Assembly: GCF_010183535.1 (NCBI RefSeq)
Contig: NC_071333.1
Location: 1,426,001 to 1,490,000, forward strand
DNA: 64,000 bases
Source: Caenorhabditis remanei
Taxonomy: Eukaryota > Nematoda > Chromadorea > Rhabditida > Rhabditidae
Direction of reading: 5' to 3'
Numbering within the stretch: position 1 is the first letter of the stretch; each line of letters starts with the position of its first letter. The notes below the pieces were generated by a model. That model was not told where the DNA came from. It did not search any database and saw only the letters and a program-made list of their open reading frames with translations. Of this stretch, positions 19,101 through 38,561 are shown piece after piece. The translations under genes were made by a program, and so were the position numbers.

Positions 19101-21965
19101 TACTAAAAATTAACTTTATTTGACAAGGACCCAACTCGAGTGTTGGCAACTCCAAAAGGAGCCCAACACTGCCAGTTGGCTTACCTATCAAGTAAACAAT
19201 GTTAATAATTACCTATTTATAATGATATAATCCTAAAAATTAACTTTATTTGACAAGGACCCAACTCGAGTGTTGGCAACTCCAAAAGGAGCCCAACACT
19301 GCCAGTTGGCTTACCTATCATCTAAACAAAGTTAATAATTACCTATTTATAATGATATAATACTAAAATACAATTTTATTTGACAAGGACCCAACTCGAG
19401 TGTTGGCAACTCCAAAAGGAGCCCAACACTGCCAGTTGGCTTACCTATCATCTAAACAAAGTTAATAATTACCTATTTATAATGATATAATACTAAAAAT
19501 TAACTTTATTTGACAAGCACCCAACTCGAGTGTTGGCAACTCCAAAAGGAGCCCAACACTGCCAGTTGGCTTACCTATCAAGTAAACAATGTTATTAATT
19601 ACCTATTTATAATGATATAATACTAAAAATTAACTTTATTTGACAAGGACCCAACTCGAGTGTTGGCAACTCCAAAAGGAGCCCAACACTGCCAGTTGGC
19701 TTACCTATCATCTAAACAAAGTTAATAATTACCTATTTATAATGATATAATACTAAAATACAATTTTATTTGACAAGGACCCAACTCGAGTGTTGGCAAC
19801 TCTAAAAGGAGCCCAACACTGCCAGTTGGCTTACCTATCAAGTAAACAAAGTTAATAATTACCTATTTATAATGATATAATCCTAAAAATTAATTTTATT
19901 TGACAAGGACCCAACTCGAGTGTTGGCAACTCCAAAAGGAGCCCAACACTGCCAGTTGGCTTACCTATCATCTAAACAAAGTTAATAATTACCTATTTAT
20001 AATGATATAATACTAAAAATTAACTTTATTTGACAAGCACCCAACTCGAGTGTTGGCAACTCCAAAAGGAGCCCAACACTGCCAGTTGGCTTACCTATCA
20101 TCTAAACAAAGTTAATAATTACCTATTTATAATGATATAATCCTAAAAATTAACTTTATTTGACAAGGACCCAACTCGAGTGTTGGCAACTCCAAAAGGA
20201 GCCCAACACTGCCAGTTGGCTTACCTATCAAGTAAACAATGTTATTAATTACCTATTTATAATGATATAATACTAAAAATTAACTTTATTTGACAAGGAC
20301 CCAACTCGAGTGTTGGCAACTCCAAAAGGAGCCCAACACTGCCAGTTGGCTTACCTATCAAGTAAACAATGTTAATAATTACCTATTTATAATGATATAA
20401 TCCTAAAAATTAACTTTATTTGACAAGGACCCAACTCGAGTGTTGGCAACTCCAAAAGGAGCCCAACACTGCCAGTTGGCTTACCTATCAAGTAAACAAT
20501 GTTAATAATTACCTATTTATAATGATAAAATACTAAAAATTAACTTTATTTGACAAGGACCCAACTCGAGTGTTGGCAACTCCAAAAGGAGCCCAACACT
20601 GCCAGTTGGCTTACCTATCATCTAAACAAAGTTAATAATTACCTATTTATAATGATATAATCCTAAAAATTAACTTTATTTGACAAGGACCCAACTCGAG
20701 TGTTGGCAACTCCAAAAGGAGCCCAACACTGCCAGTTGGCTTACCTATCAAGTAAACAATGTTAATAATTACCTATTTATAATGATATAATCCTAAAAAT
20801 TAACTTTATTTGACAAGGACCCAACTCGAGTGTTGGCAACTCCAAAAGGAGCCCAACACTGCCAGTTGGCTTACCTATCATCTAAACAAAGTTAATAATT
20901 ACCTATTTATAATGATATAATCCTAAAAATTAACTTTATTTGACAAGGACCCAACTCGAGTGTTGGCAACTCCAAAAGGAGCCCAACACTGCCAGTTGGC
21001 TTACCTATCAAGTAAACAATGTTAATAATTACCTATTTATAATGATATAATCCTAAAAATTAACTTTATTTGACAAGGACCCAACTCGAGTGTTGGCAAC
21101 TCCAAAAGGAGCCCAACACTGCCAGTTGGCTTACCTATCAAGTAAACAATGTTAATAATTACCTATTTATAATGATATAATCCTAAAAATTAACTTTATT
21201 TGACAAGGACCCAACTCGAGTGTTGGCAACTCCAAAAGGAGCCCAACACTGCCAGTTGGCTTACCTATCAAGTAAACAATGTTAATAATTACCTATTTAT
21301 AATGATAAAATACTAAAAATTAACTTTATTTGACAAGGACCCAACTCGAGTGTTGGCAACTCCAAAAGGAGCCCAACACTGCCAGTTGGCTTACCTATCA
21401 TCTAAACAAAGTTAATAATTACCTATTTATAATGATATAATCCTAAAAATTAACTTTATTTGACAAGGACCCAACTCGAGTGTTGGCAACTCCAAAAGGA
21501 GCCCAACACTGCCAGTTGGCTTACCTATCAAGTAAACAATGTTAATAATTACCTATTTATAATGATATAATCCTAAAAATTAACTTTATTTGACAAGGAC
21601 CCAACTCGAGTGTTGGCAACTCCAAAAGGAGCCCAACACTGCCAGTTGGCTTACCTATCAAGTAAACAATGTTAATAATTACCTATTTATAATGATATAA
21701 TCCTAAAAATTAACTTTATTTGACAAGGACCCAACTCGAGTGTTGGCAACTCCAAAAGGAGCCCAACACTGCCAGTTGGCTTACCTATCAAGTAAACAAT
21801 GTTAATAATTACCTATTTATAATGATATATTACTAAAAATTAATTTTATTTGACAAGGACCCAACTCGAGTGTTGGCAACTCCAAAAGGAGCCCAACACT
21901 GCCAGTTGGCTTACCTATCAAGTAAACAATGTTAATAATTACCTATTTATAATGATATAATCCTA
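16130..21965 (+). repeat. 130-bp satellite array, forward, abutting the gene island
   Basis: About 45 monomers in the same orientation as upstream. The array stops inside the AT spacer after ATAATCCTA at 21965, where unrelated sequence begins. Rare spacer variants (for example TACTAAAATACAATTTTATT near 19365 and 19750) recur, which again indicates block duplication. No genes are seen. Confidence 0.97.
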
Positions 21966-22122
21966 TGTTGACAGTCTCCTGGTCCCCGAATCAGGTCCCT
22001 GTCCCACTCCAAACTAAAATGTAATTTGTATCACTAAATTATTCTAATTTAGTTTATACTTATTACGTATTTTACTTTCTGTTAATTAACTCCCTTCTTC
22101 CCTGTCCCTTTAACCCCATTTC

Positions 22123-22453
22123 AGGCGGAAGTAATATTCCACAATTCAAGTTGCCGCCATTTAGTCGTGTCTGCGTCTCTCCAGTCAAAGGCGCACGCTG
22201 TTTCCGACGTCCGCTGGTCTCGCCACGCGCACACCTGCTAAACGACTGTGACCGTACTCGACCGACTCCCCTCGCTTGGCCTAAAGCCATTTTTAATTTG
22301 GTGTTCCTTTTTAGTGTTGTTTTTCTTCTCTCTCTAAGAGAGTTATTATTGTGTTTTGTAAGAGAAGTTGTTAGAGAGCGTCCTGTAGCCCCTCGAGAGC
22401 CCCCGATACGTGTATCGGGCGCTTACAGAGTCGCTACTATGTTCCCTCGATAA
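22123..22453 (+). other. Possible 3' terminal exon, doubtful
   Basis: After an acceptor-like CCATTTCAG (22114-22122) an open frame runs to a stop at 22453. It begins with residues reading GGSNIPQFKLPPFS and includes a hydrophobic stretch (IFNLVFLFSVVFLL, about 22290-22330). An AATAAA follows at 22544-22549. There is no ATG near the start. Upstream sequence reaches satellite within 160 bp, so any 5' exons are missing. The first residues faintly recall the LP-K-LPxF segment of retroelement Gag proteins, but nothing after them does. It could be a truncated gene remnant or chance. Confidence 0.2.
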
Positions 22454-23340
22454 CTCTTTTCCCCTTAATTCGTATTGTATTGTAAAAGGCAGAACCGAAT
22501 AGGTTTTTAATGCAGTTCCTCGCGGGACATGCTTTTTCCCTATAATAAATGGTTCTTGTAAATACTTGAGTTGTCAGCACATCGGGCACTTCCTTTAAAT
22601 CCACTGAACCACCTATTGGAAGTATAAATTGGGCTCATGTTCCCACCCTACTCGGCACATTACCGGCGGCCTTCTGGAGACAGAAGGGGTGGCCACATTT
22701 GGTGCATCTTGACCAGGTTTTCTCCGCTAGACCGGAAAATTTCGAGTTATCGATTTTTCCCCTCGACACGGACGAATCAGTCGGTTTGCCCATATTTTGT
22801 CCGAGAAAATCGATTTTTCGATTTTTTATGTGCTGCGATTCTCGTGTTTTTCCTTGAAAATACATTAGAACGGCGAAAACTTCTTTGCATTTCGCAATTT
22901 CGGCCCTTTTTTGTTGCTTTTTTCCCGCGAAATTCCGCTTCCCTTTTTTGAATTTGGCGCCATTTAAGGCCCCACCTTTAAATTTGGGAGGCAATTGCGC
23001 TCTAGTGCGAAGCGCTGCGCCGCGGTGCGGCTTTAGGCCTTCCCACTTTTGCGCGAATTTCAGCGCGATTTTTGCATCATTCCCTCGCTTTTCGGCACCG
23101 TTTTCGCGATTTTTCGCAAAAACCAGCTAGAAAATCGACGGAAAAGGCCCGAAAACACTCGGACACTCGAGAAATTCGGATTTTTCCCCTCGAAACTCGC
23201 AGTTTGTCTGAAAAATCGAATTTTCCCCGGAAAATTCTAATTTTTCGGCATTCCGCTCAGTTTCCCGGCGAAATTTCCCAATTCCACTCGATTTCTTCGC
23301 ACATCAACCTCGGATTCGCTCTCCTCGAGGATTTCGCAAC
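22454..23340. other. Gene-free stretch with TCGATTTTTC-type sequence
   Basis: I see no supported gene. The segment holds an AATAAA at 22544-22549 and many short runs of the TCGATTTTTC and TTTTCGCGATTTTTC kind. A GC-rich piece at about 22995-23040 looks like ordinary nematode intergenic or promoter-proximal DNA. Open frames on both strands here use non-ATG starts and low-complexity codons. Confidence 0.5.
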
Positions 23341-23349
23341 GGATTTTTC

Positions 23350-24250
23350 TGAAAATTGGTTGGAAATCGATCGGAACGCCCTCGCATCGACTCAAATGGA
23401 TGGCTCGAGCTTCGCGGGCATCAGTCGTTATTGCCCGGTCCCGCTTCCCTCGGTTTTCTCCCCAATTCCCCCGTTTTTCGAATTTCGAAATATTGCGAAA
23501 TATTTCGAAAATTCCGAAAAACCCGGAAACGGGCAAGGAATCGATCAGAAGTTCTACGGATCGGGTACTCTGATTGCCTCGTGCTCATTTGCGTCAGTTG
23601 TCATCGCCCTCTCCCGCTTCCCTCGTTTTTCTCCCCAATTCCCCATTTTTTCGGATTTCGAAATATTTCGAAAATTCCGAAAAAACCGGAAGCGGGCAAG
23701 AAATCGATCAGAAGTTCTACGGATTGGGTACTCTGACTGCATCGTGCTTCGTCGCTTCGTCTGCTGCTGTTTTGGTCCACTTCCCTCGCTTTTTTCTCGA
23801 GATTACGACTGGATTTCGTGATTCCGACACGCTTTGAGGTTTCGTTTCTGGTTCTTATCCCTCGTGCTACGTTGGCGAACGGTGTTGCCCCCTTCTTGCT
23901 GTGTTTTAACACGGATTCGTCCGTTTGCGGAAAGGTGTAATACTTCTAGCTAACAGATCACATCGGAGACGTTCGAGTAACGAACTAGAGGCGTTTCGCA
24001 TGTCCCGAACCACTCGGAAACTGAGAAAAAATCGATCAGAAGTTTCGCGACTGGATTGGATGGCTCCCTCGTGCCCTGTGGCTTCGGATGTCGTTTGCTG
24101 GTCAACTTCCCTCGGTTTTCTCGGGACTACGAACGGTTCTCGCGATTCCGACACCCCTCGAAGCAATTCGAGGCGTTTCGCTCGCCCCGAACCATTCGGA
24201 AACTGGGAAAAATCGATCAGAAGTCTCGTGTGATGTCCGATGTCGTTTCG
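23350..24250 (+). repeat. Imperfect tandem repeat with TCGATCAGAAGT core
   Basis: The core TCGATCAGAAGT occurs at 23541, 23704, 24032 and 24213, with a weaker copy near 23367. Spacings of 163 and 181 bp separate the first and last pairs. Each unit contains runs such as TTCGAAATATTTCG and CCGGAA before the core, and usually a TTCCCTCG(G)TTTTCTC segment. The repeat keeps a 249-codon plus-strand frame open at 23072-23821. I treat that frame as a repeat artefact because it lacks complexity and splice signals. Confidence 0.75.
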
Positions 24251-24437
24251 TACTGGATTTCGAGCGGGATTGTTCTCGTTTTGGGTGCTTCTCCCTCGGG
24301 ATGAAGCCACTTGGCTATAGTTCTCCGTTCTTATTTTTTGTGTTAAGTTGGTGAAAGGTACTGCCGCTTCTTGCTGTGTTTTAACACAGATTCGTCTGTT
24401 TGCGGGAGGGTGTGGTACTGGAAGCTGACTGATCGCA
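23850..24437 (+). repeat. Direct repeat about 475 bp apart
   Basis: Two diverged copies of an approx. 90-bp segment occur at about 23850-23955 and 24330-24437. Both contain TTCTTGCTGTGTTTTAACAC (23893 and 24368) followed by GATTCGTC and GTTTGCGG. They bracket part of the TCGATCAGAAGT repeats, so the left part of the island has grown by duplication. Confidence 0.7.
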
Positions 24438-24707
24438 TTAAAGACGGTCGTTGAATAAGTCAAGGTCCCTTCATGCCAGCTTGCTGGATCGGAGGGAGTC
24501 TCTTTGCGGATCTGAGCGTCTATTGTAGTCACGTCTTTCCGAATAGTTTTTGATATCGCCCTCTCCCCTCGCCGGATATTCTCAGAATTCTTATGAATTC
24601 TGTACTTCCGAAGGGGATCGGTGGTCAATTACAGCATTCGGACTGATACCCTACAATCGATTCCTCAGATCTAAGACGTTGTCTGGATGTCTGAGAACCC
24701 GGAACCT

Positions 24708-24737
24708 CCGCTAAGCAGCCGCAAGGCAGCGAAGCGG
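24708..24737 (+). other. Nested hairpin with GCAA tetraloop
   Basis: Outer arms CCGCT and AGCGG enclose GCC-GCAA-GGC. GCAA is a stable GNRA loop in RNA. The 8-mer CCGCAAGG recurs at 26501, 27111 and 28069 on the same strand. Confidence 0.5.
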
Positions 24738-26493
24738 TCGGGAAGCCGAGTTTTTAGATTAAAGGATGATATGAAAAACTGGGGGTCCTCGACCTCGTGT
24801 ATGATTTTGATGTTTCGGATGCTCCTTTTGAAGGATTATCGGTAGTTGTCTCCAGCTCTTCGGAGCGCGAGCAATCCCGATAACCGATTCCCTGCCGAGC
24901 GGTCAGCAGTTTTTACTGCGTACGACCCCTCTCGTGGGACAAGGATCCATCGGAATGTTGATGTTTACATGGGATCTTGGGTCGGTTTGGTTTTGTTCAG
25001 CTCACTAAGCTTCATCGGTATAATTCCGACCCGCCGAACGTGTTGAATTAAGTACCGAGCAGGCTGGCCCCCTCGTGTGAAGCCCGACTGGTTCACCAGA
25101 TACGGTTTTGAGCTTATCGGCTCGTGTTATTGACTAGCGAAAGAGATGCCAGGCAAGAGACGATCAGACTCCTCCCTCCGGAGGGCAGTCCCTGTCCCGC
25201 CTCAGGTGCTCCATTTTCTGCGTTAGTTAGGGACTGTAAGCTCTGTGTCCCACCCGTTTCCCCCTAGCGGCTCCCATCCACTAACCGTGGTCGTCTTGCC
25301 GGCAAGGGTCTCTGGTCGGCATATGAATACAGAAACCTCGAGTAAGGTACGCCACGAATCAGTGCGTATGCCACTTTCGTAACCGGCCCCTCGAGTTAAC
25401 ACGCCCCAATGAGATTTCATTAGACGTTCCGTGAGCTGTTCTTGCCTTATCGTATGATTTGGTAGTCGTTTGAGAACAGTTAGCGGAATACGTACTGTAT
25501 CTGGCCCATCATCGGGACTCAGAAATTTCGTAAGCCGTCAGTAGATAGCAAGCGAGCCTTCGGATAGTCTTCTTTTGCTCCGGTTTAGAGCTTGACAGGA
25601 AATGGCGATATTTCCTCGACCTCACGACCCTCGCAATTTTGGAAGTTCGACCAATGGTGTTAATGCGAGCCTCGGCGATTCGATCTCCCTCGATGTATTT
25701 CGAGTCTTTCGAATCCCCCTCACCTCGATAACACACCTAGTCAATTCTTCTAGTGTTTCATCCGATTCGCTCCCTCGCTTTCAGACTTCCAGGTAGAAAG
25801 TCGATTTAGTTCATCGATTGTTCGAACACCCACTGGTTTAGTAGCAGGATTCTGAAGGGTTAAGGCTGATGCCTACTTTCGAAAACATCAACGCAAGCGT
25901 TGCATTGTGAGTAGATCCGAAGCGATCGAGCAGTCGGTACCCTCTGTTTACCTGATATGATAACTAGCGGCCTATTAGATAACATCGACTCACTAATATC
26001 CACTCTCTATCCCAAGAAGACGCTATTATCGCAGAAAAATCTGAGTAATTTCGCACTTGTCTTCTGTGTTAGAACCTCCAATGGAAAGGAACTACGCCTA
26101 AGCTCGCCGGTTCGACAGACGCTTTTCAAGCATCTGAACTCGCCGATCCTCAGACGACCATTCCCTCCGGCGGAGCATTTGGTGCTAGCGAGTCATCCGT
26201 TCAATTTGATTCGGAGAGCTATGCATTGAATGGGTTCCAGATCGTTCGGTCTCACCGAGGAACGTTGAATTTCGTATCGAGATCGGAGCCCCATATGGGC
26301 CTACTCCCCTCGGATACATGCAATTTGAATTTCAACCGACTCTGTACACATCGATACGAAATCTGACCTAACTGCCAGAAGACTTAGTTGAAGAGTGTAT
26401 ATGCTCTTCGGCGACCGACATATTCAGTAGCGTGTTAACATGAACTGAAACAGTCAGCCCGGTTATTCTGGCTTGTTGGCCCGCTCCCCCTCG

Positions 26494-26515
26494 TAACCGG
26501 CCGCAAGGTTGGTTA
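26494..26515 (+). other. Hairpin with GCAA loop
   Basis: TAACCGGCC pairs with GGTTGGTTA, two of the pairs being G-U in RNA, around a GCAA loop. The G-U pairs would form only in plus-strand RNA, not in a DNA cruciform. Confidence 0.5.
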
Positions 26516-28044
26516 TTCGGTGATCGTCCCCAATGAGCTATAGGATAGTCGGCTGTGTTAGTGCGAGAGAGTGTCTTTCGTATGCTCTTCTGGTTACAGG
26601 ATTTGAGGAGGATACTCCCTATGGAGCATCCTCTGGCCCCCCGGAGCGTGGATTACGCTCTGGGGAGAGTTTCTAGTATTGAATCACGTTCAGAGATGAT
26701 CGTAGTCAGCGATTCGGTGTAGCCTTCGCCGAAGCATATCCCTCGATTTCGAGTGAGACCCTTCAGAGCGGAGATACACTCGAATCCTCTGGCCCCCCGG
26801 AGCATGGGTTCTAGGACCCACTGCTCCAGGGCGCCATTGATTATGAGACCCTCGGGACCAGATTGGTGCTATCAGATCCGCCTATTGGAAGATGTGTATG
26901 AAGTATGGAATCAGAGTTTCGATTCTGAATCCTAGATATTCAATCATACATAACACGGAACTCTGAGTATCTCGTGAAAAATGTTCATTATCGAGAGTAG
27001 TTCGACCGAAATAGACTTACATTCTCCCCCAGTGGGCGAGTGTGGGCACGTTTCCCTCGAACTGCAAAGGAATTCTTGTAGCACAGATTCTGTGTTAGAA
27101 TCTCGCTGTCCCGCAAGGGATTTGGTATACTCTAGACCGGATTTTCGGCAGTTTTCGCGTCAGGTCGCGTGGCTTTTGTACCTTTTTGGTACATTACTGA
27201 CTGTGGACACTTCCTCGAAATCTGAAGGTTGTCTAACAACCGTTGTCGACAGTATTAACAATCTGGAAATCCACTCGATAACCACATCTGGATGAGAGAA
27301 AGAGAATAAACTAAGTGGTGCTTTAGTTTGCGGTATAGGCAGATGACAGCGATAAGCCGGAGTTGTATGACCCCTCCTTCTCCCTCGATTCTCTTAGTGG
27401 CCGTAGGTAGTCGTTTTTGATTACGGACCCTCTCTGTCATTCGAGTCTTCGTTTTGTTCTGAGTAGGACTTGAGGTTGAAGCTTTCGGTTTAGCCGTTTT
27501 GGAGCGATTTTAAGCGGATCGGTAGATTAACGGGCCGGCCGCCTGGCAAGCGGAGGGCCTTATTAGGCTACCAATACCTCGTCTCTATCACGAACTACAC
27601 TGAAAGTAGATCCTCGAGACTTACTAAGAACCGATGAGAATGACAGTCGTTTAAGAGAGACCGTAATCAGCTTACGAATACACTATATTGTCAAACTAAT
27701 TACATGACGGAATCCGTTATGATTCCAAAGCCTCTTTGCTTTCAGAGTGGTGGTCTCGATCGCCACATAGAAAGCTCTCGCTTAGCTTTGAGATGGTTTA
27801 GTATCGTGTTGCGGCGAAACTTCTCGCGTAGAGCTCTACCAGTGATGTCTGAGAAGGTGACTCCTTCAACTGATGCCGCTGACTATCTCTCGTCATCTCG
27901 AACCTTTTCGCCTTTGTATACGCAAGTAGTTTCTTTTTTGAATTCTAACTTATTTTGCCCGTGTAACTCCGTGACAGTTTCTCGTCATTGTTCCATCCGA
28001 GCATAGTTGAATCAGTTATGTTTCAGCGACCCTCGAGATCGACG

Positions 28045-28754
28045 ATGTCGGCTAACGGATCTGACCCGCCGCAAGGCTTCAATCAGCCCTCGGAGCATCC
28101 ACAGCGTGAGATTCACCAGAATTCGAGCTAGAAATTACAGATGATGGTGTTTTAGGTGTGACAATGAGCCGTGCCGACTACGATATGTTGATTTCCGGTC
28201 TGAGACTGGTTATGGTGTCCATGAGACACTTTGAGATGCAGCTTCAAGCCAGCTCTCGTATTCAGGACTCTCTGTTCAAGTTATTGAATGGAAAGTTCAA
28301 GGCCGACCTCGGAGCGGAGATTAGCGACCTCGTAGCCAAACGCCTCAAAGATTCCGATCTTGGAACCGCCAAAAAAGAGAAGGACCCTCGCATTGCGCGA
28401 AAACGCTACTCTAATTACGCGGTACCCAGTCACACCTAAATATCCCAGCGTCACCTAATGTTTCAGAAGATCTCGAAGATCATGGATCGAATCCGTGGCG
28501 ACGTGGCCAACGGAGAATTGAGTACTCGAGGCATCCGAAAACGTATCAAGATTTTCCAGTCTATTACTTACGGAGACTCCTCGGAGTCGTCTGATTCGTC
28601 GGAAGATTCGGATGGTCAGGACTCCGATCCGGATACTCCCCCATCCACCTCTAACGGCGAAGAAGACGATTCAGATGACGACGCCGGCACAGGTTTCCAA
28701 TTCGCCCCAGATCAGTCTGGCGCAGTTGCCCCTTCTGCTTGCAACGTCTACTGA
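28045..28754 (+). CDS. Three-exon helical protein with acidic serine-rich tail, 204 aa
   Basis: Function unknown. My model joins 28045-28105, 28156-28421 and 28467-28754 across introns of 50 and 45 bp (GTGAGA...TTTTAG and GTACCC...TTTCAG), and the reading phase is kept at both junctions. The ATG follows a TTTCAG acceptor at 28021-28026 by 18 nt, with no partner donor visible, which suggests spliced-leader addition. An AATAAA lies at 28947-28952. The protein starts with a short Pro/Gln-rich head (MSANGSDPPQ), continues with a helical region (about residues 24-130) with lysine/arginine clusters, and ends in a disordered tail dense in S, D and E (about 145-192). The same plan is seen at 31886 and 37962. 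An alternative start at 28164 would give 181 aa. Confidence 0.72.
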
Positions 28755-28946
28755 ATCCGTTCCGTAGACTCCAATCTTGTTACAACCTCGCTTCCAAGAT
28801 CCTTCAATTTTTCCCACCACCCTCGCGACAGCATTTTTTCCGCCTCACTGGACATTTTCACCTCTTCACGCGTTCAACGACGTCTTGATCCGCCTAATTC
28901 CTCGTCCAATTCTCACTCACCTTAACGTGTCTATTAAATTTTTCTT

Positions 28947-28952
28947 AATAAA
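28947..28952 (+). terminator. AATAAA polyadenylation signal
   Basis: AATAAA lies 193 nt after the stop at 28754, followed by a T-rich stretch. It is the natural 3' end for the 28045 gene. Confidence 0.7.
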
Positions 28953-29600
28953 ACTTGTTCTTTGAACCAGTTCAATTTCGTCTTCCACGTTGGGGTTATA
29001 TCTGGTTTTAACCAGCTCTATTTGTGATAATCGATGAACATGTTAGGCTCATTTTAGGCGTTTCGAACACACGAATGAGTCACTCGAACCGTTACGACAG
29101 ATGCCAGATTCTGTACATCTAGAAGAGCCCGTTGACCTCGTGTTATTCGTCCCTCGTATTATTAGCCAACTCCTCGTGAGAAGAGACGGCTCTGATACGA
29201 ATTCTGATGAAATTTCACCCGGCCGCCTCGGAAACTTGATAAGTTACTTCGCTGGTGATTCGTTAGGCATAGGCTAAGGTCTTCTGATCGCAGCCGACCC
29301 CTCGAATTCCGAGTCCAGTAATATGTCATGCTCGTTAGAACCACGGAAACTCTGATATCTTCTCGAATGACGGATTTCGGATGATAATGAAATCGGAGTG
29401 AAGGATGCGCCGCCCTCGTAACAGTTCGGATGCATCAGCCTCTAGACTCCCTTGGACTATAAATTTTTACGCAATTCCGTTTTGAATCATTGAGATTTTG
29501 TGGTCTTTCACTATTTTTTCAAAGTGAACTGTCGTTAATCAGATCGTATCATTTCATTGATTTATCACAGAAACGTGTAAAAACCGTTGTATTAAGTTAC
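28953..29600. other. Intergenic region, no supported gene
   Basis: Contains several CCTCG/CCCTCG copies (for example near 29151, 29289 and 29412) and an AT-richer final 150 bp that leads into the next gene. I see no coding exon with acceptor and donor signals. Confidence 0.5.
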
Positions 29601-29607
29601 CTACAGA

Positions 29608-30219
29608 ATGCCTCTGTCGGACAGTGCTCCCTTCGATTTCCCAGCGATCGGATTCAGTCTTCACTCGATCAATGCCCACGGTACTCCGTATCTGTCGGTA
29701 CGAGTCGACTACGACCCGCTCAATTTCGAGTCCTTCTCGGAGGACGCGATTAAGTGGTATCAATGGGTTGATGATAAGTTCGTTCTTTATCATATCAACC
29801 CACCTCGTCCACCTCCTGGATGCCCCGAAGGCCCACATTCACATGTGAGAAAGCACTATTCGACTCAGCCTCGTTTTGTATTTTAGGACGGAGGATTCTT
29901 CGTAAAAGTCGAATTCGCGACTTGGCTGCGGAACTCGGTTCCCGTGGATTGTCCGCGCTGCCAATGCAACCCGTGGTACGATACTCCTCTCTACGATCAT
30001 TCTGATCCACTGGAGTGTCAAGCCCTCGCGTTCGCAGCGGTAATCGCCGATGGTCTTCGTGAAGGAAAAATGATGGAGGATATTAAAATTGAGGCTCATC
30101 TCTTTGAGCTGCCCTCGACTAGTCGTACCCAAAATTATTGGCCCTCGGAACCCACCCGCGCGGAGACCCTGTCTGGATTATCGTCTCTGAGAAGAGCATT
30201 TTCAACCTGGAATCTCTAG
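29608..30219 (+). CDS. Two-exon cysteine-containing protein, 189 aa
   Basis: Not recognised. Exons 29608-29844 and 29887-30219 join in phase 0 across a 42-bp intron (GTGAGA...TTTTAG). Without splicing the first frame would stop at once. The ATG lies one base after CTACAG, consistent with a trans-splice acceptor. The first exon encodes an aromatic, Pro-rich region (WYQWVDD, then PPRPPPG). The second begins DGGFFVKVEF and has a CPRCQC cluster with another Cys about 20 residues on, possibly a small metal site. Segments GGFF and PL-x-CQALAFAAVIAD resemble NGGFF and SPLDQWVAYHVAI in the 30924 protein, so the two may be distant paralogues. No AATAAA is visible within 200 nt downstream. Confidence 0.7.
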
Positions 30220-30890
30220 AAGCCCTCGTTTGAGCTTCTTTGGCCGTTCTACTAACTACTTGTACGTTTTTAGCACTGTCGCTTGGTAGATTTCAGCCTG
30301 GAAAGGCTTTTCCTTCAAGGAAAATGGCCATGTAGGTCAGAATTGCGAAATTTGAGAGTTTCGAAAAAGTACGCATAATTTTTTCTTAGCTAGTTTCGAG
30401 CCAGCAGGCAGCTGACGCACTTTGCGTGTTACTTGTGCGCACTTCCGGTGTAGTCGTTTAAGATGAGCAAGCTCATTTACATCGGTCGTGTTTCAGGTTC
30501 CTCGTCTCAATTCTCGCATATTCTCACCTCGTTGTTGTTTTTTGTTGAAGTTTGCTAACTGAAAATTCCGTTGGACCGGAACAGCTCCGTTACGTAATGA
30601 TGAGATGATGGTAACGCCCCCGTGATTTCTTTCCGTTACTATGAAAGATTCGTTTTTCAGAGTAACTGCCGATGCAAAATAGCGTTTCGTCACCGCCGGA
30701 ACGAGATCCCTCGGGATTTCGTAAAAGAAGTCACAAATTATTAGATATAATTGTCGTTATATGAGATAAAAGTTCCCACGAAATGCCCCCTTTATGTGTT
30801 CATTGATCCCCAGCGTGTTTTTGCATGTCGGTATCTTTGTTCTGTTCGCTTTACATAGACCGGTGTTTCGCGGCTAAACTTTTATTTCAG
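30220..30890. other. Intergenic region with a palindrome and a repeated motif
   Basis: No supported gene. An odd-centred palindrome (TTTTCCTT, C, AAGGAAAA) lies at 30308-30324. A segment with AGCAGGCAGCT (about 30402) and GCACTTCCGGTGT (about 30438) has a diverged counterpart at 34318-34410. A TTTATTTCAG acceptor at 30881-30890 ends the stretch. Confidence 0.5.
30308..30324. other. Odd-centred palindrome, 8-bp arms
   Basis: TTTTCCTT, then C, then AAGGAAAA, about 90 nt after the stop of the 29608 gene. It could act at the RNA 3' end. Confidence 0.55.
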
Positions 30891-30923
30891 GTAACAGCAC
30901 TTTTTGGCCAATCATCAGCGAGC

Positions 30924-31719
30924 ATGGATCAACTCGGTAGACATCCCTCGTGTTTGAGAAAGGAGGAAACTTGCAAAAGTATCCAAATAGATCGAATCGG
31001 GCGATTATATTGATTTCTTCCAGATTCTCGCTCCCTCGATGGGACTTCTCGCGCTGAGAAATCAGATCAGAAGTCAGTTAGTTTCGTTGGCGCTCCGAAT
31101 TTCGATGTCAATCGCCCTCGGGCATCAGAGATTGTGAATTCTAGCAAAAATGATTACAGACACCCCAAAAAAACGATGGTTGGCCAGAAAAAAGCAGACA
31201 GTTTAATCTAATGATGCCTCTAGTTTTCAGATTCGGATAGATCGAATGCCAATGGAAGTGATGGTTCGAGCATACGCCTTCGCATCACGCAATCGTGTGT
31301 GGTCAACCTGGATTCTCGTCGAAGTTGAGAGTGGTCGAGAGCATAGTGTCCGGGCTTTCGAGTTGAACGGCGGATTTTTCCTCCAGAAGACTCCGGAAGC
31401 TCTTGGAACACGTATCCCTCGGGATATGTCACCATTGGACCAGTGGGTAGCCTATCACGTAGCCATTTTGGATTATGTTGATGTAAATGCTCCTCGCCCT
31501 CGATACTCCACTTCACGACTGTCTTCGTTGAGTTTGGTTCGTGAAAACGATATGAACTGCGGATGCCTACCCTCGTTACTGTCACAACATGAATCGTTCG
31601 GACTGTCTGATTTCTGTCAAATCCGTCAAACCGCCCAAAAAGCGATGCTCTTGGTACATCACAAGCTCCAAACGAGAACCCTCGAAAGGATGTTTTCACT
31701 CAAATGGAAGCCGTCATAA
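30924..31719 (+). CDS. Three-exon protein of unknown function, 217 or 232 aa
   Basis: Not recognised. Exon 1 is 30924-30978 and the first intron 30979-31023 (45 bp, GTATCC...CTTCCAG). Exon 2 starts at 31024 and ends either at 31178 (52-bp intron, weak GTTGGC donor) or at 31133 (97-bp intron, better GTGAAT donor). Both choices join exon 3 (31231-31719) in phase 0 after TAGTTTTCAG. A lone TTTATTTCAG at 30881-30890 lies 33 nt before the ATG. The N-terminal part is basic and Ser-rich. Exon 3 encodes a mixed domain with NGGFF and SPLDQWVAYHVAI. AATAAA is at 31755-31760 and the next gene starts 166 nt after this stop, an operon-like distance. The protein could also begin at the ATG at 31246 (157 aa). 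Confidence 0.6.
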
Positions 31720-31754
31720 ATTGCAGAAAGACTGATCGTTCATTTTTACCTCGT

Positions 31755-31760
31755 AATAAA
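31755..31760 (+). terminator. AATAAA polyadenylation signal
   Basis: Lies 35 nt after the stop of the 30924 gene and 126 nt before the ATG of the next gene, a spacing typical between cistrons of nematode operons. Confidence 0.7.
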
Positions 31761-31885
31761 GTTGTGTCCTCCACTACTCATTTATGCTTGTAATTCAGTA
31801 ACTCGGTGTTTACCCCGTTCGATATCTGTTTCGTAAACGACTCAGTGAATTAATCATTATTTTTGTATTGATTTAGCATAAACAG

Positions 31886-33875
31886 ATGAGTGCAGCTAAC
31901 ACTACTGACGACCAGGAGCGAGTGAACAATCAAGTCCCTCGCAATCAGCTTCCGCCGATCGCCTTGATCCAATGCCCCCCGATAAGTGAGCAACGTATAA
32001 ACGAGCCCCTTGAGATCGGCAAAGGTAAAAACAGATCGATAATGAGTGGAGAGTGACTAGGTTTCTTTTCCAGAACCCTCGCCCGCACCACCGGTCTTCG
32101 GACTCGGATTGCCCCGCGTGGAGCCCGGAACAGAAGCCGAAAGAGAGCTCCTCGATTATGGTTAGTGCTATTCAGTGCGCTGGATTGCGGCTAAATCATC
32201 TCTTTTTCAGGGGATAGCTCAGGAGAGGAGAACCAGATCCTCGATGAGGCCGGAAATTCGTACTCAAACGAGGACGACCTCCCGCCGCCAAACGAGCAGA
32301 TTCAATTCGGTCCGTCACCGTTCTATGTTGATACCAACTTGAACATGGACGACGTCGATCCCTCGCAGGATTCATCAGATAAGGACCAGGACGTAAGTCC
32401 AGTGTCTGCATCCGGTGATGAGACCGACGGAAAGATGCCAGAGACCGCAGCTCAACTCCTCGAAACTACCCACGAATCAGAGACGATTCCCACGATTTTG
32501 GCAATGCTGAAAAAGATCTCGGATCAGCTCCATACCATCTCGACAGCTTCAGTCACCCATGATGACCTCGGCAAATACGTGACCAAGAAAGATCTCGAAG
32601 TGCTGGCGACAAAGAACGACCTCGAGGCCCTCGCAAAGAAAGCAGATCTGACTGATCGTATTCCTTCCCTCGATCAATGGACCGATATGATTGAGAGATT
32701 GGCCCCGATCGCAACTCTCCAGGGTATTTCCAAAAATATGGGTATCTTCCTGGAGCAGCTGACTCGGATCGCGATCGATCAACGCCGTCTCTCCAGAAGT
32801 CAAGGAAAAGGAAATGAGAAAGTTGAGCTGCTTTTGAAGCAAGGTTCCCTCGATTGGAAAAAGTTCGAAAGCACCTCGTTGAAAATCACCAGAGTCTACG
32901 ATTCACTGAGAAGCTATATTGCACGGAAAGTGTCATCGATGGAAACGGCCACGGAGGTCAGAGATCTGAAAATCCAGATGGCTGGAATCAAGAAGGATCA
33001 GGATAGCTTCAAGCAAATCCTCGAACCAGGCGCAGACCACGATGATTCAGTCCTGATAGCCCTCGATGAGATCGAAGCGATCGGTAATTCCTCGGACCGT
33101 GCGCACAATCGAAAGGTTGCTGAAATTGAGGAGCGAAAGCTTCATGAGGCCCGAAAAACCGTACGTAGTGTGAATTTCTTAGATCATTTCTTAATTCAGC
33201 AATGTTCAGAGTACCACAATATGTTTTTACTGTCGTGGAGCTCATGACGCAGCCCAGTGTGATGTCCACCTCGATCTGCAATCGAAACGTCTGGCGCTGA
33301 TTACTCAGCAAAGATGTATCATCTGCGGAAAGAACGACTGCGATGGCTCGCCAGAACTCTGCAAAGCGAAACACCGCCTCTGCGTCAGATGTGATCCGTC
33401 CATGCCCTCCAAAGAACGAGAGCATCACCCTCTTTTGTGTCCCTCCCGCCACCAGAAGCATCCGTCTTCCTCGGCCGGAGAAACCTCGAAAGTGGGAAAT
33501 CGCTCGGAATCTGATCCAAAAGATGACTCCTCGTACTTCGGCGCCAACATGGACAAATATCTTGACCATTCTCGGCCTCGCCAAGAAGGTCGATATCACG
33601 TGCAGAGAAAGTATGTCGACTTTAAAGAGAATGGTTTCTTCTCGGACTCCGGTTCCGATGAAGAGAAGGCCTCGTCGAGTCACCGAGCACTAGCCCCCTC
33701 GTCCAGCAAAGGATCCGGCGGTGAACCCTCGAAGAGATATGGTGGAACCAAGTGGCAGCGTCGTGGCGCCAAGCACAGAAGCAGTGGAAAGCGCGACGAT
33801 GCGAAGAGACCGAAACTCGCCCCAGTGGCAAAGTCGGAAACCTCGATAAAGAAGGAGCCAGAAGCTGCCGAATAA
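31886..33875 (+). CDS. Four-exon coiled-coil protein with Gag-like CCHC zinc knuckles, 613 aa
   Basis: Exons 31886-32024, 32074-32160, 32211-33160 and 33210-33875 join in correct phase across introns of 49, 50 and 49 bp (acceptors TTTCCAG, TTTTTCAG, TGTTCAG). The ATG directly follows AAACAG, a likely trans-splice site. Residues 1-160 are Pro-rich then acidic; about 165-330 are helical, including a heptad-like KKDLEVLATKNDLEALAKK repeat (about 201-221). Exon 4 opens with CFYCRGAHDAAQC (C397, C400, H404, C409) and continues with CIIC (428-431), C436, C443, C450, C453, H464/H465 and C469. A knuckle, an R-L linker and a second Cys cluster recall Gag proteins of BEL/Pao-like retroelements. No protease or polymerase follows. 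The tail is Ser-rich and basic (KRDDAKRPK). It may bind RNA or DNA; domesticated Gag is inference. Confidence 0.8.
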
Positions 33876-33953
33876 TGAATTGTCCCTCGAGATTTATATA
33901 ACTGTTAAACAATTTTTGTTGTTTTTCTATCAATTTTTTGTTACGGGTTTTCT

Positions 33954-33959
33954 AATAAA
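33954..33959 (+). terminator. AATAAA polyadenylation signal
   Basis: Lies 79 nt after the stop of the zinc-knuckle gene in a T-rich context. Another TTTCAG acceptor follows about 75 nt later. Confidence 0.75.
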
Positions 33960-34062
33960 TCCCAGTCGTTGTTGATCTCGAGCGATTTCATTCTCGGCTT
34001 TGATATGAGTTCCAACTCATGATTATTTCTGTTTCAGTGCTCTTTTATTTCCTCGCCTCCTG

Positions 34063-34146
34063 ATGTCCAAACACGAACTGAATGCCACGTATCAGGGAGG
34101 TGCCAGCCAATTCGCTGGACCCCCCTTCTTCTATAGTTATGAATAG
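34063..34146 (+). CDS. Possible 27-aa ORF behind a splice acceptor
   Basis: An isolated CTGTTTCAG acceptor (34029-34037) is followed 25 nt later by an ATG opening a 27-codon frame (MSKHELNATYQGG...) that ends in TAG at 34144-34146. The distance from the preceding AATAAA is operon-like. I could not find a good donor that would extend it into a longer gene. It may be the first exon of a decayed or undetected gene, a small peptide, or chance. Confidence 0.25.
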   Translation: MSKHELNATYQGGASQFAGPPFFYSYE

Positions 34147-34155
34147 AAGTTAAAC

Positions 34156-34172
34156 ATCATACTCAGTATGAT
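34156..34172. other. Odd-centred palindrome, 8-bp arms
   Basis: ATCATACT, then C, then AGTATGAT, just after the possible short ORF at 34063-34146. Confidence 0.6.
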
Positions 34173-35828
34173 CTTCTGATCGTTCTGAGGCTAAAAGGAG
34201 ATTCTTCCGTCCCTATGACCTCGAGTCCGGGTAAAATGATAAACCTCGTATGTCAGTCACAGAATTCAGTGCTCCAGGTTCTCTGGACACTAATTTGGTG
34301 CAATTTGGGTTGATAATTAGCAGGCAGCTAACGCCGTATTCCGATTTTGGACTAGTTCCAGCGCCCTCGGGCATGTCATACCTATTTTTGGTGCACTTCG
34401 GTGTTTGTGACTCATAATCGGGTACAATCTTCCCTTCCGATTGAAAATTAATTCAATTGGTAAATCCCTAAACCTGTAATCAAAGCGATGATACTAGGTG
34501 GCTCCTTGTTTAAGCCTAGATTCAGGGTTATCCGGGTCGGTGATCACTGTGATCTTAAAAACCGGTCCAATCCCTCGGGATAAATACTTAATTTCCGGAT
34601 CTATGATGCTAAAGCTAGAAAAGGAATGAGGATATAGATGATAATTTGTGTTCAGAATCTTCACAGATAGTTCAAATCGCAACTTAGCGATCAAGTTAAT
34701 GCATTGGAATTCTTCTCTAAAATTTCCTATAAATTTCAACGGAATACGAATCCATCTGGTGCATTTTGACTTGGTATAGCTCAGTGTATTTGGTGCGTCA
34801 GATACGTTGTTACTATACATGACTGTCTAAGATCTAAGTTTGTTCTGCGAGTGAAAGTATCCTACGCCGGCCGCACGCATTGCAATATCTAGACCATGTG
34901 AGTTCCTCGGATACGATTCCACTCCCCCCACCGCTTCAGCTCAATCGATAATCGCTCCCTCGGGATTCGAGAGACGTTTGGTCTTCAGCGCCGGGCGATC
35001 TGTTATCAAGCCGACAACTCGGTCTAAGAATTTCCTCGGTAAACATCCTCCGGGACTATACTAACAGAAATTCGCGATATTTTAATTTAGCGCCCGCCCG
35101 CAAAAATTCGGTTGAATCAAGTTCTTTGCTAAAACCGGAGCGTATTGACACAGGTTTCGCAAGAGCGGAATTTGAAGCTCTGTCATTACGTGGATCATTC
35201 ACCTCGCGTACTTACTGGCTCACAAGTGTACCGTCGAACGATGTCAGTGCCCTCGGGACGTGCTTCTTCGACAACTACACCTCGTTTACTTCTATACGTC
35301 TTTTGACGACTTCAGGAACGTCAAGCGACTGAACTGAAAGTGCCTCTTGTACCGAGATTTCATCTCAATTTCGTTCATCAATGTATTTTCTTCCCCCCGT
35401 TAGGGCAATGGAGTTAATCGTTCATGAGCGGCGGTCTGATTGACTTAAAAAATGTCCGCCAGCGGAATATCTCGATTGTTCCAAGGTGCTCGTTTTTGAG
35501 CCATGACGATGGCAAAGGTGCTCGTCACCTCCTTGATAAGTGATATCATCTCGTAGTCATCTACAGATGAAACCTCAGTTCTTTCTAATGCTGCCTGATC
35601 GAACTGCAGCGTATCACGAAAAGCAAGGAACCGTCTCTACCTAAAGGATTCTTTCCTTTTAACTTCATGCATCGATGAAAATTCAGCTGAATTTACCGTC
35701 CATGCGTGGTCATATCCCCTCGAAGATGCATTCGCCGACTGAGACGTCACAGAAAGCTACCTACTTTGAGACCTATATGACACAACGAGGTTATACGTAA
35801 ATTATTAGTGCGTGTACCCCTCGTATTC

Positions 35829-35847
35829 CACGTTCATTATGAACGTG
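35829..35847. other. Odd-centred palindrome, 9-bp arms
   Basis: CACGTTCAT, then T, then ATGAACGTG. A second inverted repeat, CCACGT-TACT-ACGTGG, follows at 35875-35890. Possible binding sites for a dimeric protein, or hairpins. Confidence 0.6.
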
Positions 35848-37961
35848 ACCTCTTACGTGTACTAATAAACTTGTCCACGTTACTACGTGGCTAAAGTGAG
35901 ATGGGCGGTTTTGAGCCCCAGTGTTCAGTTCGTGTTTTCACATCTTTACCCTTCGCTCTTAAAAACCCCCGTCTTAATTTGGTTGGACGTCCTGTTTATC
36001 GGTGCTAATATCTGTAAACCATGCTCTTCGCAGCCCATCTTTAGACCGATCGTTTGAGGCAAATTGCTTTCGAGCTACCCGTGTCGAACTCTCCGTCTCT
36101 AATGGGTTACTCCTTAGAAGCGGTCATGAATTCCAGCAAGATTGAACGGTCTTCCGGAATCCCATCGCCACGATCTAGGAGTGAAAATTCATTAATATGT
36201 CCTCGGATATATTTAATTTTGAGCATCATTCGGGTACTTCTGATTTCCATCGAATTCCTCGTCAACTGACGATATTTGGTGCAGATGTACTAAGTACAGA
36301 TAAGCAACTGTCTCGAAAACAAGACAGTCCGATTAAAACAGTTACCTCGTCTATTACAAGTCTGCACGTATTGAGAAAAAGCCCTTCCTGAATTCGAGAT
36401 TCATGAACGGGGGTAAAATGTGATGAAATCAACTCTATGCGATGAGTAAGATGTAGACTCGATACGATCGCTCGAGCCGTCTGGGGCGAGATCGTACTAC
36501 TTTTTAGCGTGTTAAATCGGAAAAATGTTCACCATGTGCATAGAATACGAGAATCTAAGCATCGGATGCTTCAGAATTCAACCGATTCACTGGGAAAAGT
36601 GGGAGCTTATGGAAGAAAGCGGCATCTTAGCCAGATGGAGAGCTCCATATGTTTTAAAAAGTCCACATCGGATTCAATTTTCGCGAATGCTTTCCGCCAG
36701 TTGATGAGTGGGTCGAGTCCCTCCATCGTTTCACATATCCGAGTCTTTACTATGGTACAAGTATTAGAAACACGTACAATTTCATCTCATGTCTCTAGTA
36801 CAATCCTCGTGGTGATACCGTTAACCTCGAAAGATTGCTTAAAAGGGCGACTTCGGTCGTTGGTCAAGGAGGACATGTTCTCGACTTCTCTAGGGATCGA
36901 TACACGTTATCCCAGCCATAAATCCTGTCTCCCGCGTGTCTATGATACAGCCGTGATTGAATGAGCCGATAATCGTGTTACCGCTAGAGAGGGTTTGTAT
37001 AAACCGATAAGCCTCGGACAAAGCCTAGTTTCCCTGTCTAGAATCTACTATGACCTTGATCGGGAGTTGGAATAATTGAGAGATACCCGACTTTCCCCAC
37101 CGAGTAGTAGTGCCCTACCGAAGGGTTCCGAAGTTCCTATTAGCAGATCCAGTTTCATCTGACGGACTACTTCAGGTAAATTCGTAGTGTTATGTTTGAA
37201 GACCTCCGTGTTGTGGTGAGAAGCCACCAGACACTGGAGAACACGCCCCTCGTGATACAGTAAGTGCGATACTGCTGAGAACTCTGTAGTCATGTAATCC
37301 ACAAGTGCCGGAGCCAACGCGGGCCCTCGTCCACCTCTGTGTTGCACATAGTCGACAGTAGTCTATCATGATTTGAACGGGTACTCGTTTGGTGAACGAT
37401 ATCCCAGAGCCAATTCAGAACTCTCATCTGAAAAGGTCCCCTCTCGTATCTCAGAGTTGCGAGGCTCTGAACGTGTCTAGCTGACGGTACAGCGAAAACA
37501 ACACCCCAGCCACTTCATTTCTCGGATTCTAGTATTCAGTCTGTGTCGACTCTTCGGAAGGCGAAGGTTTTTCAACTTCCGGAGTGATGGTCGATGAGTC
37601 GATGAGCTGTGATGAGATATACGTTGTATAACATCCATTTAGGATGAACTAAGTTAGAGTTAGACGTAATTATAACTTGGTATTCGTCCTACCAAGGCAA
37701 CGTCTCGGAGCTCACCTGACTCGTCCTCCTACTGAGCACAGCTGACGCTACAATTTTAGTTTTGTTGTGTAGCCTGGTTTCAGCTTCGAATGTGCAGTTC
37801 GTGGATGGACGTCAGGACTCGCCCGAACAGGAGCGGACTTCATAGCGTTTTGTTTCTCTGTTTTTAATCTTTTTATAGTCCCGCTGTCCGGTCTCAATTC
37901 TCTTAAAGAATAATTTATTTTCAGTTTCTCATCTTTCAACACCTCGTGTGAACAATCAACC

Positions 37962-38561
37962 ATGTCTGGTACCGGACAACAACACTCGCGGATCGACCCC
38001 TCGTCAACATCTGGAGGAACCGCCGCAAACAACAACGTGATTCAACGTCAACCCTCGGAGAACTTCAAGAAGGCTCAGAAGAAAGTCAAGACCGCGATCA
38101 CTCGTGCAAGTTCTGCCGGCGTCAAAGCTGTGGCAGAAGCACAACCTTTCATTGACGACACTTCGGTCGTCCATGACGCTATCGAGCTCAAGACTATCAA
38201 CGACTTACGAAAGAAGTTGATCGTCATCAAAGCAATGATCGAGACTGATAATCACTTCCACGATTTCGTCTCCAAAGTCCAGGAAGTCCTGTCCAACAAG
38301 GAACGTCACCGTCTACGCGAAGCGGCAAAGGCTCATCTCAATCTGAAGCCTCGGACCAACACCTTGCCGGTTCTCAGGACGACCATATTGGCATTGCAAG
38401 AAGCGCTCGAAAGCAGAAGTACCGCTATGACGAAGAGGTATCCTCTACGGAAGCCGCGGATATCTCGGAGTTAGTGGAAACTTCACCCCAGGAGGATGAG
38501 ATTGTATCCGACGAGGACGATTTGAATGATCCCTCGTTATCAGATACTTCTCAAGAAGTCA
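37962..38561 (+). CDS. Partial gene with frame break, cut by the assembly gap
   Basis: Not recognised. The ATG at 37962 lies 39 nt after a TTATTTTCAG acceptor. The first frame encodes a Ser/Gln-rich head (MSGTGQQHSR), then a helical, Lys-rich region (about residues 35-160), and stops at 38474. A second frame, one base back, is open from about 38252 to the gap. From 38430 it encodes an acidic tail (EEVSSTEAADISEL, then EDEIVSDEDD), very like the 28045 protein plan. No acceptable intron joins the two: the donors are poor and the phases wrong. A missing base near 38430 would join them, which fits the deletion-prone sequence on the other side of the gap. The 3' end is missing. Confidence 0.6.

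What the first reader, a model, noticed from the sequence alone, without database searches (positions are those of the whole stretch)
22269..38536. CCCTCG is strongly enriched on one strand of the island, in coding and non-coding DNA alike
By hand I count about 67 CCCTCG on the plus strand of the 16.3-kb span and no CGAGGG. A hexamer is expected about four times per strand at even base composition. About 24 copies fall in inferred exons, split over all three codon phases (Pro-Ser, Pro-Arg and Ala/Ser-Leu readings); the rest are in intergenic DNA at similar density. CCTCG adds about 60 more. Codon bias, a protein repeat, tandem duplication or the satellite cannot explain this. It implies an oriented DNA or nascent-RNA code, comparable in logic to Chi sites, uptake sequences or nematode PATC tracts. 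Possible roles are germline licensing, elimination or retention marking, or polarity of transcription. Those roles are inference.
Basis: partly seen in the sequence, partly recalled or inferred. Interest (0 to 1): 0.88.

Follow-up and report, generated by a model that had tools for sequence, protein, structure and literature searches.

The report
Retrotransposon lineages with private strand-specific motifs
The odd one-sided CCCTCG signal belongs to a giant worm jumping gene, and several related jumping-gene lineages in the same genome carry a different short word of their own on the coding strand, as if each lineage labels its own RNA.

Summary
The count is right: 67 CCCTCG on + and 0 on - in 22269-38536; second-order Markov expectation 10.5. 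The island is not host DNA. It is the 5' ~16.6 kb of a young BEL/Pao LTR retrotransposon in satellite. Four related families (A-D) carry CCCTCG in sense orientation through the parts fetched, coding and non-coding, beyond codon expectation (A pol 26 against 3.0). In pol, sites are conserved beyond background between A and D (38 of 47 against 20.4), not between A and a sister lineage with another motif (3 of 18 against 4.2); elsewhere places often turn over. It is absent from 19 of 20 other BEL/Pao pol pieces. Five other lineages carry their own word, each confirmed in held-out sequence: ACCGCG, ACCGCT, TCCCGC(CG), TCCCAC, CCGCGG. L057 of the same clade, one Ty3-type and one Maverick-like piece showed none; 11 of 22 pol pieces had no significant hexamer. 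Best explanation, inferred: dispersed self-recognition sites on genomic RNA, read by an element-encoded protein, most likely Gag.

The parts
21966..38561 (+). 5' part (about 16.6 kb) of a giant BEL/Pao-type LTR retrotransposon (family A) that carries the CCCTCG motif
   Evidence: Multi-copy relatives; LTR and 5-bp target-site evidence; gag-pol in the relative L039
21966..22697 (+). 5' LTR, 732 bp, TGTTGACAG...GTGGCCACA, with 3 CCCTCG and 0 CGAGGG
22698..22715 (+). Primer-binding-site-like stretch directly after the LTR (TTTGGTGCATCTTGACC); the tRNA was not identified
22269..38536 (+). 67 CCCTCG sites (positions listed), none on the other strand
22716..28100 (+). Long 5' region with no gene recognised (a 249-aa mechanical ORF at 23072-23821 was not examined); carries the motif
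28110..28751 (+). Two adjoining open frames, no Pfam match above cut-off
29596..30216 (+). Two adjoining open frames of an accessory gene; like frames in family D (L003), compared by eye
31207..31716 (+). Accessory open frame (170 aa); like frame in family D (L003), compared by eye
32195..33872 (+). Accessory gene: one frame, then a cysteine/histidine-rich zinc-knuckle-like frame; no Pfam match above cut-off; homologous frames in family D (L042), 55% and 45% aa identity
37962..38561 (+). Start of gag (MSGTGQQ...), cut by the assembly gap
   Evidence: matching protein in L039
38562..38661 (.). 100 N, scaffold gap inside the element
9126..21965 (+). 130-bp satellite into which the element is inserted (5' flank ends in TCCTA, matching the bases after the 3' LTR at C6:1417283)

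Best explanation
The feature is a lineage-specific, sense-strand sequence code of BEL/Pao LTR retrotransposons. Shown: several lineages each carry their own short C-rich motif, about two to four times per kb along the parts examined, in one orientation; for CCCTCG it is in coding and non-coding DNA, exceeds codon expectation, and is conserved in pol only between lineages that share it. Inferred: because only one strand is marked, it is read on RNA (or on one cDNA strand). The likeliest reader is Gag or its zinc knuckles, and the likeliest purpose is to recognise and compact the element's own very long genomic RNA for particle assembly, setting it apart from RNA of the many other BEL/Pao copies (139 Pao-peptidase matches in this genome, fragments included).
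For: One-strand enrichment in A, B, C and D, first-ranked hexamer in 5 of 5 sequence sets (bins). Codon-shuffle excess: A pol 26 against 3.0, D pol 17 against 3.0, A gag 8 against 1.7, B gag 7 against 1.6; above all 1000 shuffles in 8 of 12 frames. Constraint in pol only where the motif is shared: A to D 38/47 against 20.4 (z 5.2), A to C 15/18 against 7.5 (z 3.6), A to L060 3/18 against 4.2 (z -0.7). Private motifs in other lineages, held-out counts sense/antisense against expectation: L060 ACCGCG 33/0 against 2.9, L061 ACCGCT 23/0 against 2.6, L054 TCCCGC 19/0 against 2.2, L048 TCCCAC 16/0 against 3.3; L050 CCGCGG 6 in 2 kb. Exactness: TCCCGCCG 22/0, its 24 one-mismatch neighbours together 3 sense and 1 antisense. 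Nearly diagonal cross-table. Non-autonomous family B, with a gag only 34% identical to A's, no C-terminal knuckles and no match to A pol residues 263-1499, keeps the motif at similar density (15 CCTCG in gag against A's 17, 3 shared): this suggests sites that must be kept for recognition in trans. A regular expression found C-terminal Gag zinc knuckles in the 6 lineages with that part in hand and intact (A, D, L060, L061, L054, L048).
Against: No binding or expression data. The A/D-type motif is predicted to be slightly less accessible than same-composition hexamers (0.056 against 0.086); other lineages are mixed, so there is no sign of a loop context. In the aligned island DNA, sites shared with three C copies (5/17, 8/19, 8/19) and with B (30/36 against 74%) are not significantly above background; A and D share 0 of 3 CCCTCG in gag and 0 of 7 CCTCG in the frame at 33195. 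L057, inside the motif clade, showed no clear C-rich motif in 4.5 kb, and 11 of 22 pol pieces had no significant hexamer, the C-type L059 among them. In the D pol piece ACCTCG, not CCCTCG, ranked first. Knuckles of A and L060 are very similar although the motifs differ, so if Gag reads the motif few residues must set specificity.
Confidence: 0.5

Rival explanations
1. The motif is read on nascent or nuclear RNA by an element-encoded accessory protein (for example the cysteine-rich product at 33195-33872) for nuclear export of unspliced RNA or to block small-RNA silencing, like CERV of Cer1 or Rev-type systems, not for packaging.
For: Strandedness fits RNA. A and D carry accessory frames with cysteine clusters. 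Cer1 of C. elegans needs its CERV protein for gRNA export (PMC10309623, passages seen).
Against: In the fetched pieces of L048, L061 and L054, which carry private motifs, there were only one to three further frames of 200 aa or more beside the large gag- and pol-like frames; their nature was not examined, so this is weak.
Confidence: 0.2
2. DNA-level anti-silencing or chromatin marking by an element-encoded DNA-binding protein, as for VANC21 and its YAGTATTAY sites in Arabidopsis VANDAL21.
For: VANC21 motifs are also dense, lineage-specific and in one orientation, and differ between related families (PMC5735166, passages seen). The CCGCGG of L050 is a palindrome.
Against: VANC21 sites sit mainly in non-coding regions and tandem repeats. 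Here they also fill coding DNA in all phases without tandem duplication, and 67 against 0 orientation has no obvious reason on duplex DNA. All 11 CCGCGG copies are followed by A or T.
Confidence: 0.12
3. A host RNA-binding protein or small RNA is exploited, for example a poly(C)-binding KH protein or an Argonaute guide with the complementary seed.
For: The six motifs are C-rich. CCCTCG is followed by A more often than expected (73 of 204), as for Argonaute targets (recall).
Against: Six different motifs in one genome would need several host readers. Elements would not be expected to accumulate targets of silencing RNAs. The A preference is not seen for L060, where T is commonest (20 of 40 ACCGCG are ACCGCGT, 10 ACCGCGA).
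Confidence: 0.1
4. A mutational or copying bias (reverse transcriptase, primer incorporation, gene conversion) creates the motif without selection.
For: Sites turn over at similar density in part of the element.
Against: Differing orthologous sites look like ordinary point changes. I know of no ordinary mutation process that makes an exact oriented 8-mer with almost no one-mismatch variants. Sites are conserved above background in pol.
Confidence: 0.05

Closest known systems
BEL/Pao LTR retrotransposons (Belpaoviridae)
   Same: LTRs TG...CA, 5-bp target-site duplications, Pol with Pao peptidase A17, RT, integrase zinc domain (below its cut-off) and DUF5641, Gag with DUF1759 (just below its cut-off) and zinc knuckles
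   Different: Very long 5' region with accessory frames (about 15 kb between 5' LTR and gag), and lineage-specific sense-strand motifs, which I know from no description of the family (recall plus the searches named in the full report)
VANC / VANDAL anti-silencing motif system of Arabidopsis
   Same: Short motif, high density, one orientation, private to a transposon lineage, differs between related lineages (passages)
   Different: Duplex DNA binding shown by EMSA, sites mainly in non-coding regions and tandem repeats; here coding and non-coding, no tandem repeats, LTR retrotransposon, reader unknown
Multiple dispersed packaging signals of RNA viruses and hepatitis B virus
   Same: Many dispersed recognition sites that promote packaging of one RNA (highlights of PMC6281560 as shown in the listing; paper not opened)
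   Different: Those are structured and degenerate (recall); here the word is nearly exact and no loop context was found
Cer1 / CERV of C. elegans
   Same: Nematode LTR retrotransposon with an extra protein acting on its own genomic RNA (passages)
   Different: Gypsy/Ty3-related (title of PMC3315495); no such repeated motif is mentioned in the 12 of 23 passages shown
Chi sites, uptake sequences, PATC
   Same: Oriented or dense short words (recall)
   Different: Those are genome-wide host features (recall); close pairs of CCCTCG are not enriched genome-wide and the dense places found are elements

Membership tests
BEL/Pao LTR retrotransposon | Direct LTRs with TG...CA ends | tested here: met
   direct LTRs in 4 of 4 family-B copies; the window shows the 5' LTR only
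BEL/Pao LTR retrotransposon | Short target-site duplication | tested here: met
   5-bp repeats GCAGC, GGTTA, ATGTC, ATAGG at 4 of 4 B copies; TCCTA beside the window LTR and after the 3' LTR at C6:1417283
BEL/Pao LTR retrotransposon | Pol with Pao peptidase A17 / RT / integrase | tested here: met
   in the relative L039 (A type; integrase zinc domain 21.2 bits, below the 25.5 cut-off), and by PF05380 match at the D copy on C3. The window copy is cut by the gap before pol; B lacks RT-IN
BEL/Pao LTR retrotransposon | tRNA primer binding site after the 5' LTR | tested here: inconclusive
   TTTGGTGCATC... follows the LTR in the window and in B copies; no tRNA was matched
VANC/VANDAL-type motif system | Dense, lineage-private motif in one orientation | tested here: met
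VANC/VANDAL-type motif system | Motifs in non-coding tandem repeats | tested here: not met
   coding and non-coding, spacing random-like; Tandem Repeats Finder lists only one short array (23482-23519) inside the island
VANC/VANDAL-type motif system | Element-encoded protein binds the duplex motif and reverses silencing | not testable with these tools
   No binding or chromatin data
Dispersed packaging signals | Many copies of the motif over the sense RNA | tested here: met
Dispersed packaging signals | Motif presented in a stem-loop | tested here: inconclusive
   Predicted accessibility lower in A/D, higher in L061 and L054, not different in L060 and L048
Dispersed packaging signals | Bound by the coat/Gag protein | not testable with these tools
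   No binding data
Genome-wide uptake or Chi-like sequence | Enriched across the host genome | tested here: not met
   close pairs only: 109/105 against reversed control 133/144

The most novel reading that the evidence does not exclude
A clade of nematode BEL/Pao retrotransposons uses an evolving sequence code: lineages mark their whole genomic RNA with a private, near-exact sense-strand word (core CC-N-C: CCTCG, CCGCG, CCGCGG, CCGCT, CCCGCCG, CCCAC) that their own protein reads to tell self RNA from the RNA of rival retroelements in the same cell. Word and reader co-evolve, and non-autonomous relatives must keep the word to be mobilised.
Probability: 0.5. Interest if true: 0.93.

Novelty: new variant of a known kind. 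Interest (0 to 1): 0.86.

Why it matters
How LTR retrotransposons pick their own genomic RNA out of a cell full of related RNAs is an open question; known signals are mostly structured sites near the 5' end (recall). Here the recognition words appear to be readable straight from sequence, differ between lineages in one genome, and come with a natural switch pair (A/D with CCTCG, L060 with ACCGCG, pol 75% identical). That makes reader, specificity and self/non-self directly testable, and it gives a way to spot functional cis-signals and helper/passenger pairs among transposons from sequence alone.

Tried and rejected
Rejected: chance or composition; codon bias; tandem duplication; satellite; host-wide motif (close pairs only); a known RNA family or tRNA in the island (0 matches). 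A scan of IMG/VR for BEL relatives in other organisms matched 37 stretches, none confirmed, so no second species was tested. A database search with the cysteine-rich frame 33195-33872 gave 1 protein, from a 1.2-kb contig, not informative. Pfam scans of 8 window frames gave no match above cut-off. RNA accessibility gave mixed results. Significant hexamers in L062 and L064 (P 0.04 and 0.03) were not followed up and may be chance; the null rests on 100 shuffles per piece and 22 pieces were tested. L057 was followed up and showed no C-rich word (top hexamer GACAAC 11/2). One Ty3-type piece of 1.8 kb and one Maverick-like piece, so named by eye, are thin negative controls. One search was a useless alignment (second row of one residue).
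Full report
Observation. In 22269-38536 there are 67 CCCTCG on the plus strand and none on the minus strand; CCTCG is 124 against 9; outside the island the window has 0 CCCTCG and 3 CGAGGG. A second-order Markov model of the island expects 10.5 (Poisson tail about 2e-31), and CCCTCG is the top hexamer by that score and by strand asymmetry. The word is sharp: only the base before CCTCG is loose (C 67, A 25, T 24, G 8), and each other one-mismatch hexamer has at most 10 copies. Spacing is random-like and positions modulo 3 are even. Close pairs of the word are not enriched genome-wide: 109/105 against 133/144 for the reversed control.

What the island is. A DNA search of the whole genome (130.5 Mb, 186 contigs; the species is named by no tool; the size and six large contigs resemble Caenorhabditis remanei, from recall) found 62 matches, 24 of 147 candidates being scored. 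Window 21966-22697 is an LTR (TGTTGACAG...GTGGCCACA), found in direct orientation at both ends of four ~12-kb copies on C4 (family B), each with its own 5-bp target-site duplication; their LTR pairs differ by 0, 0, 1 and 1 bases. A copy on C5 (L039) continues through gag and an unbroken 1950-aa pol frame with Pao peptidase A17, RT, DUF5641 and a weak integrase zinc-domain match. So the 'island' is the 5' part of a giant BEL/Pao element with accessory frames ahead of gag (28-34 kb), cut by a 100-N gap at 38562. Its 5' flank ends in TCCTA, and a 3' LTR at C6:1417283, 1 mismatch in 727 aligned bases plus 10 gap columns, is followed by TCCTA in the same satellite: most likely the two ends of one recent insertion, set apart by scaffolding (inference).

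The motif belongs to the element. In kilobase bins it fills the elements and stops near the edges seen in B, C and A; the edges of D were not fetched. CCCTCG is the first hexamer by Markov score and by asymmetry in 5 of 5 sequence sets: A 5' part 67/0, A gag-pol 32/1, B 49/0, C 18/1, D 77/3. Orientation follows the element, not the chromosome. Shuffling synonymous codons gives 3.0 +- 1.7 in A pol against 26 observed and 3.0 +- 1.6 in D pol against 17. The observed count is above the mean in 12 of 12 frames tested and above all 1000 shuffles in 8 of 12; the other four are D gag, the B pol-like frame, the frame at 33195 and the 377-aa D frame.

Selection. Between A and D pol, 38 of 47 CCTCG are kept, where other 5-mers of four G/C predict 20.4 (z 5.2); A to C (L059) 15 of 18 against 7.5 (z 3.6). 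Between A and L060, whose pol is 75% identical but whose motif differs, 3 of 18 are kept against 4.2 (z -0.7). Elsewhere the picture is mixed. In the aligned island DNA, A to D keeps 30 of 63 against 29% background (P 0.001), but A to three C copies 5/17, 8/19 and 8/19, not significantly above background, with similar numbers of sites on both sides, and A to B 30/36 against 74% (P 0.14). In coding frames other than pol, A and D share 7 of 9 CCTCG in the frame at 32195, 4 of 10 in gag (0 of 3 CCCTCG), and 0 of 7 in the frame at 33195 although both have 7. So density is kept while many places turn over.

Other lineages have other words. A Pfam search listed 139 BEL/Pao A17 matches; I fetched 2.5-kb pol pieces at 20 of them. 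Only 1 of 20 (L059, a C-type copy) shows CCCTCG (6/0); 19 of 20 have 0 or 1. Codon-shuffle testing of the top hexamer was significant (P up to 0.05, 100 null shuffles each) in 11 of 22 pieces, A and D included, and not in 11 of 22, L059 among them; in D the top word was ACCTCG. For four lineages I fetched further parts of the element and counted the word found in the pol piece in that held-out part: ACCGCG (L060) 33/0 against 2.9; ACCGCT (L061) 23/0 against 2.6; TCCCGC (L054) 19/0 against 2.2; TCCCAC (L048) 16/0 against 3.3. The first 4 kb of L068 has none and may lie outside the element. A fifth, CCGCGG (L050), gave 6 in 2 held-out kb, 11 in 4.5 kb against 0.6; it is a palindrome but 11 of 11 are followed by A or T. 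L054's word is an exact octamer TCCCGCCG, 22/0, its 24 one-mismatch neighbours together 3 sense and 1 antisense. Working out phases from the positions and the frames, 8 of 10 of its pol sites read Pro-Ala, so part of the count in pol could owe to protein sequence; but the codon shuffle holds the protein fixed and still expects 0.9 TCCCGC against 6, and its 7 gag-region sites use all three phases. It occurs 5 times each in the near relatives L052 and L056 (10 together). L060 also uses ACCACG 16/2 and ACCTCG 14/1, and L048 also shows ATCTAC 20/1. The six words against 14 sequence sets give a nearly diagonal table; the largest off-diagonal sense counts are TCCCAC 7/3 in A, 7/3 in B and 7/0 in L054, then ACCGCG 5/1 in D and CCGCGG 5/5 in L060. 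L057, inside the same clade, shows no C-rich word in 4.5 kb; a Maverick-like piece and a 1.8-kb Ty3-type piece show none. On an RT-region tree of 22 rows (midpoint root), the lineages with a confirmed word lie in one supported group of 15 (100/99), which also holds L049, L051, L053, L057 and L062 without a confirmed one.

How it may work. Shown: a private, oriented, near-exact word per lineage in the lineages named, and for CCCTCG selection at nucleotide level in pol. Inferred: reading on single-stranded sense RNA, since duplex readers seldom need one orientation everywhere; an element-encoded reader, since the word differs between lineages in one host. Family B is informative: its gag is 34% identical to A's over 660 residues and lacks the C-terminal zinc knuckles, its pol pieces match A pol only at residues 22-262 and from 1500 on, yet its LTRs are 94-95% identical to the window LTR, it moved recently, and its gag holds 15 CCTCG against A's 17 with 3 shared. 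It looks like a non-autonomous passenger that has to keep the word (inference). Structure prediction did not place the word in loops.

Literature. VANC21/VANDAL21 is the nearest pattern: passages of PMC5735166 describe YAGTATTAY sites at high density in the same orientation, mainly in non-coding regions and often in tandem repeats, with other words in related families. PMC10309623 (passages) describes CERV of Cer1 acting in gRNA export. PMC6281560 was seen only in the listing. Searches whose listings (titles and abstract starts) showed no description of such a motif in LTR retrotransposons; these cover open-licence PMC papers only, so absence from print is not established.

Noticed in passing
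window 38562-38661 and C6:1417283 (L026): The 5' LTR in the window and a 3' LTR about 30 kb upstream look like the two ends of one insertion (matching TCCTA, 1 mismatch in 727), so the scaffold order around the gap is probably wrong; the satellite lies in opposite orientations on the two sides of the island.
   Followed up: partly
C4:1.69, 5.37, 6.33, 10.68 Mb (L010-L017, L022-L025, L032, L036-L038, L041): Four young ~12-kb elements (family B) with A-type LTRs; the copy at 6.33 Mb, the one read in full, has a diverged gag without C-terminal knuckles and no RT-integrase.
   Followed up: partly
window 22698, 26178, 34294, 34387, 34789, 36275: TTTGGTGC, the start of the primer-binding-site-like stretch, recurs 6 times on the plus strand and 0 on the minus strand of the island.
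   Followed up: no
window 23530-24240: GATCAGAAGT and neighbouring words recur in a degenerate repeat of the 5' non-coding region.
   Followed up: no
L042 3435-4565 and 4783-6066: Two family-D frames of 377 and 428 aa without a Pfam match at E 0.01, the first with several cysteine pairs.
   Followed up: no
L039 (minus strand), end of pol: The C-terminal tail of pol carries degenerate peptide repeats (DLDVGRSGTS and the like) of unknown role.
   Followed up: no
L045 (C5:21555001-21562541): Frames that look like a Maverick/Polinton element (named by eye, not scanned) adjoin the C copy on C5.
   Followed up: no
window 48573-48597 and 50992-51016: GGCCGCGGCC short tandem repeats lie in the satellite arrays.
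   Followed up: no
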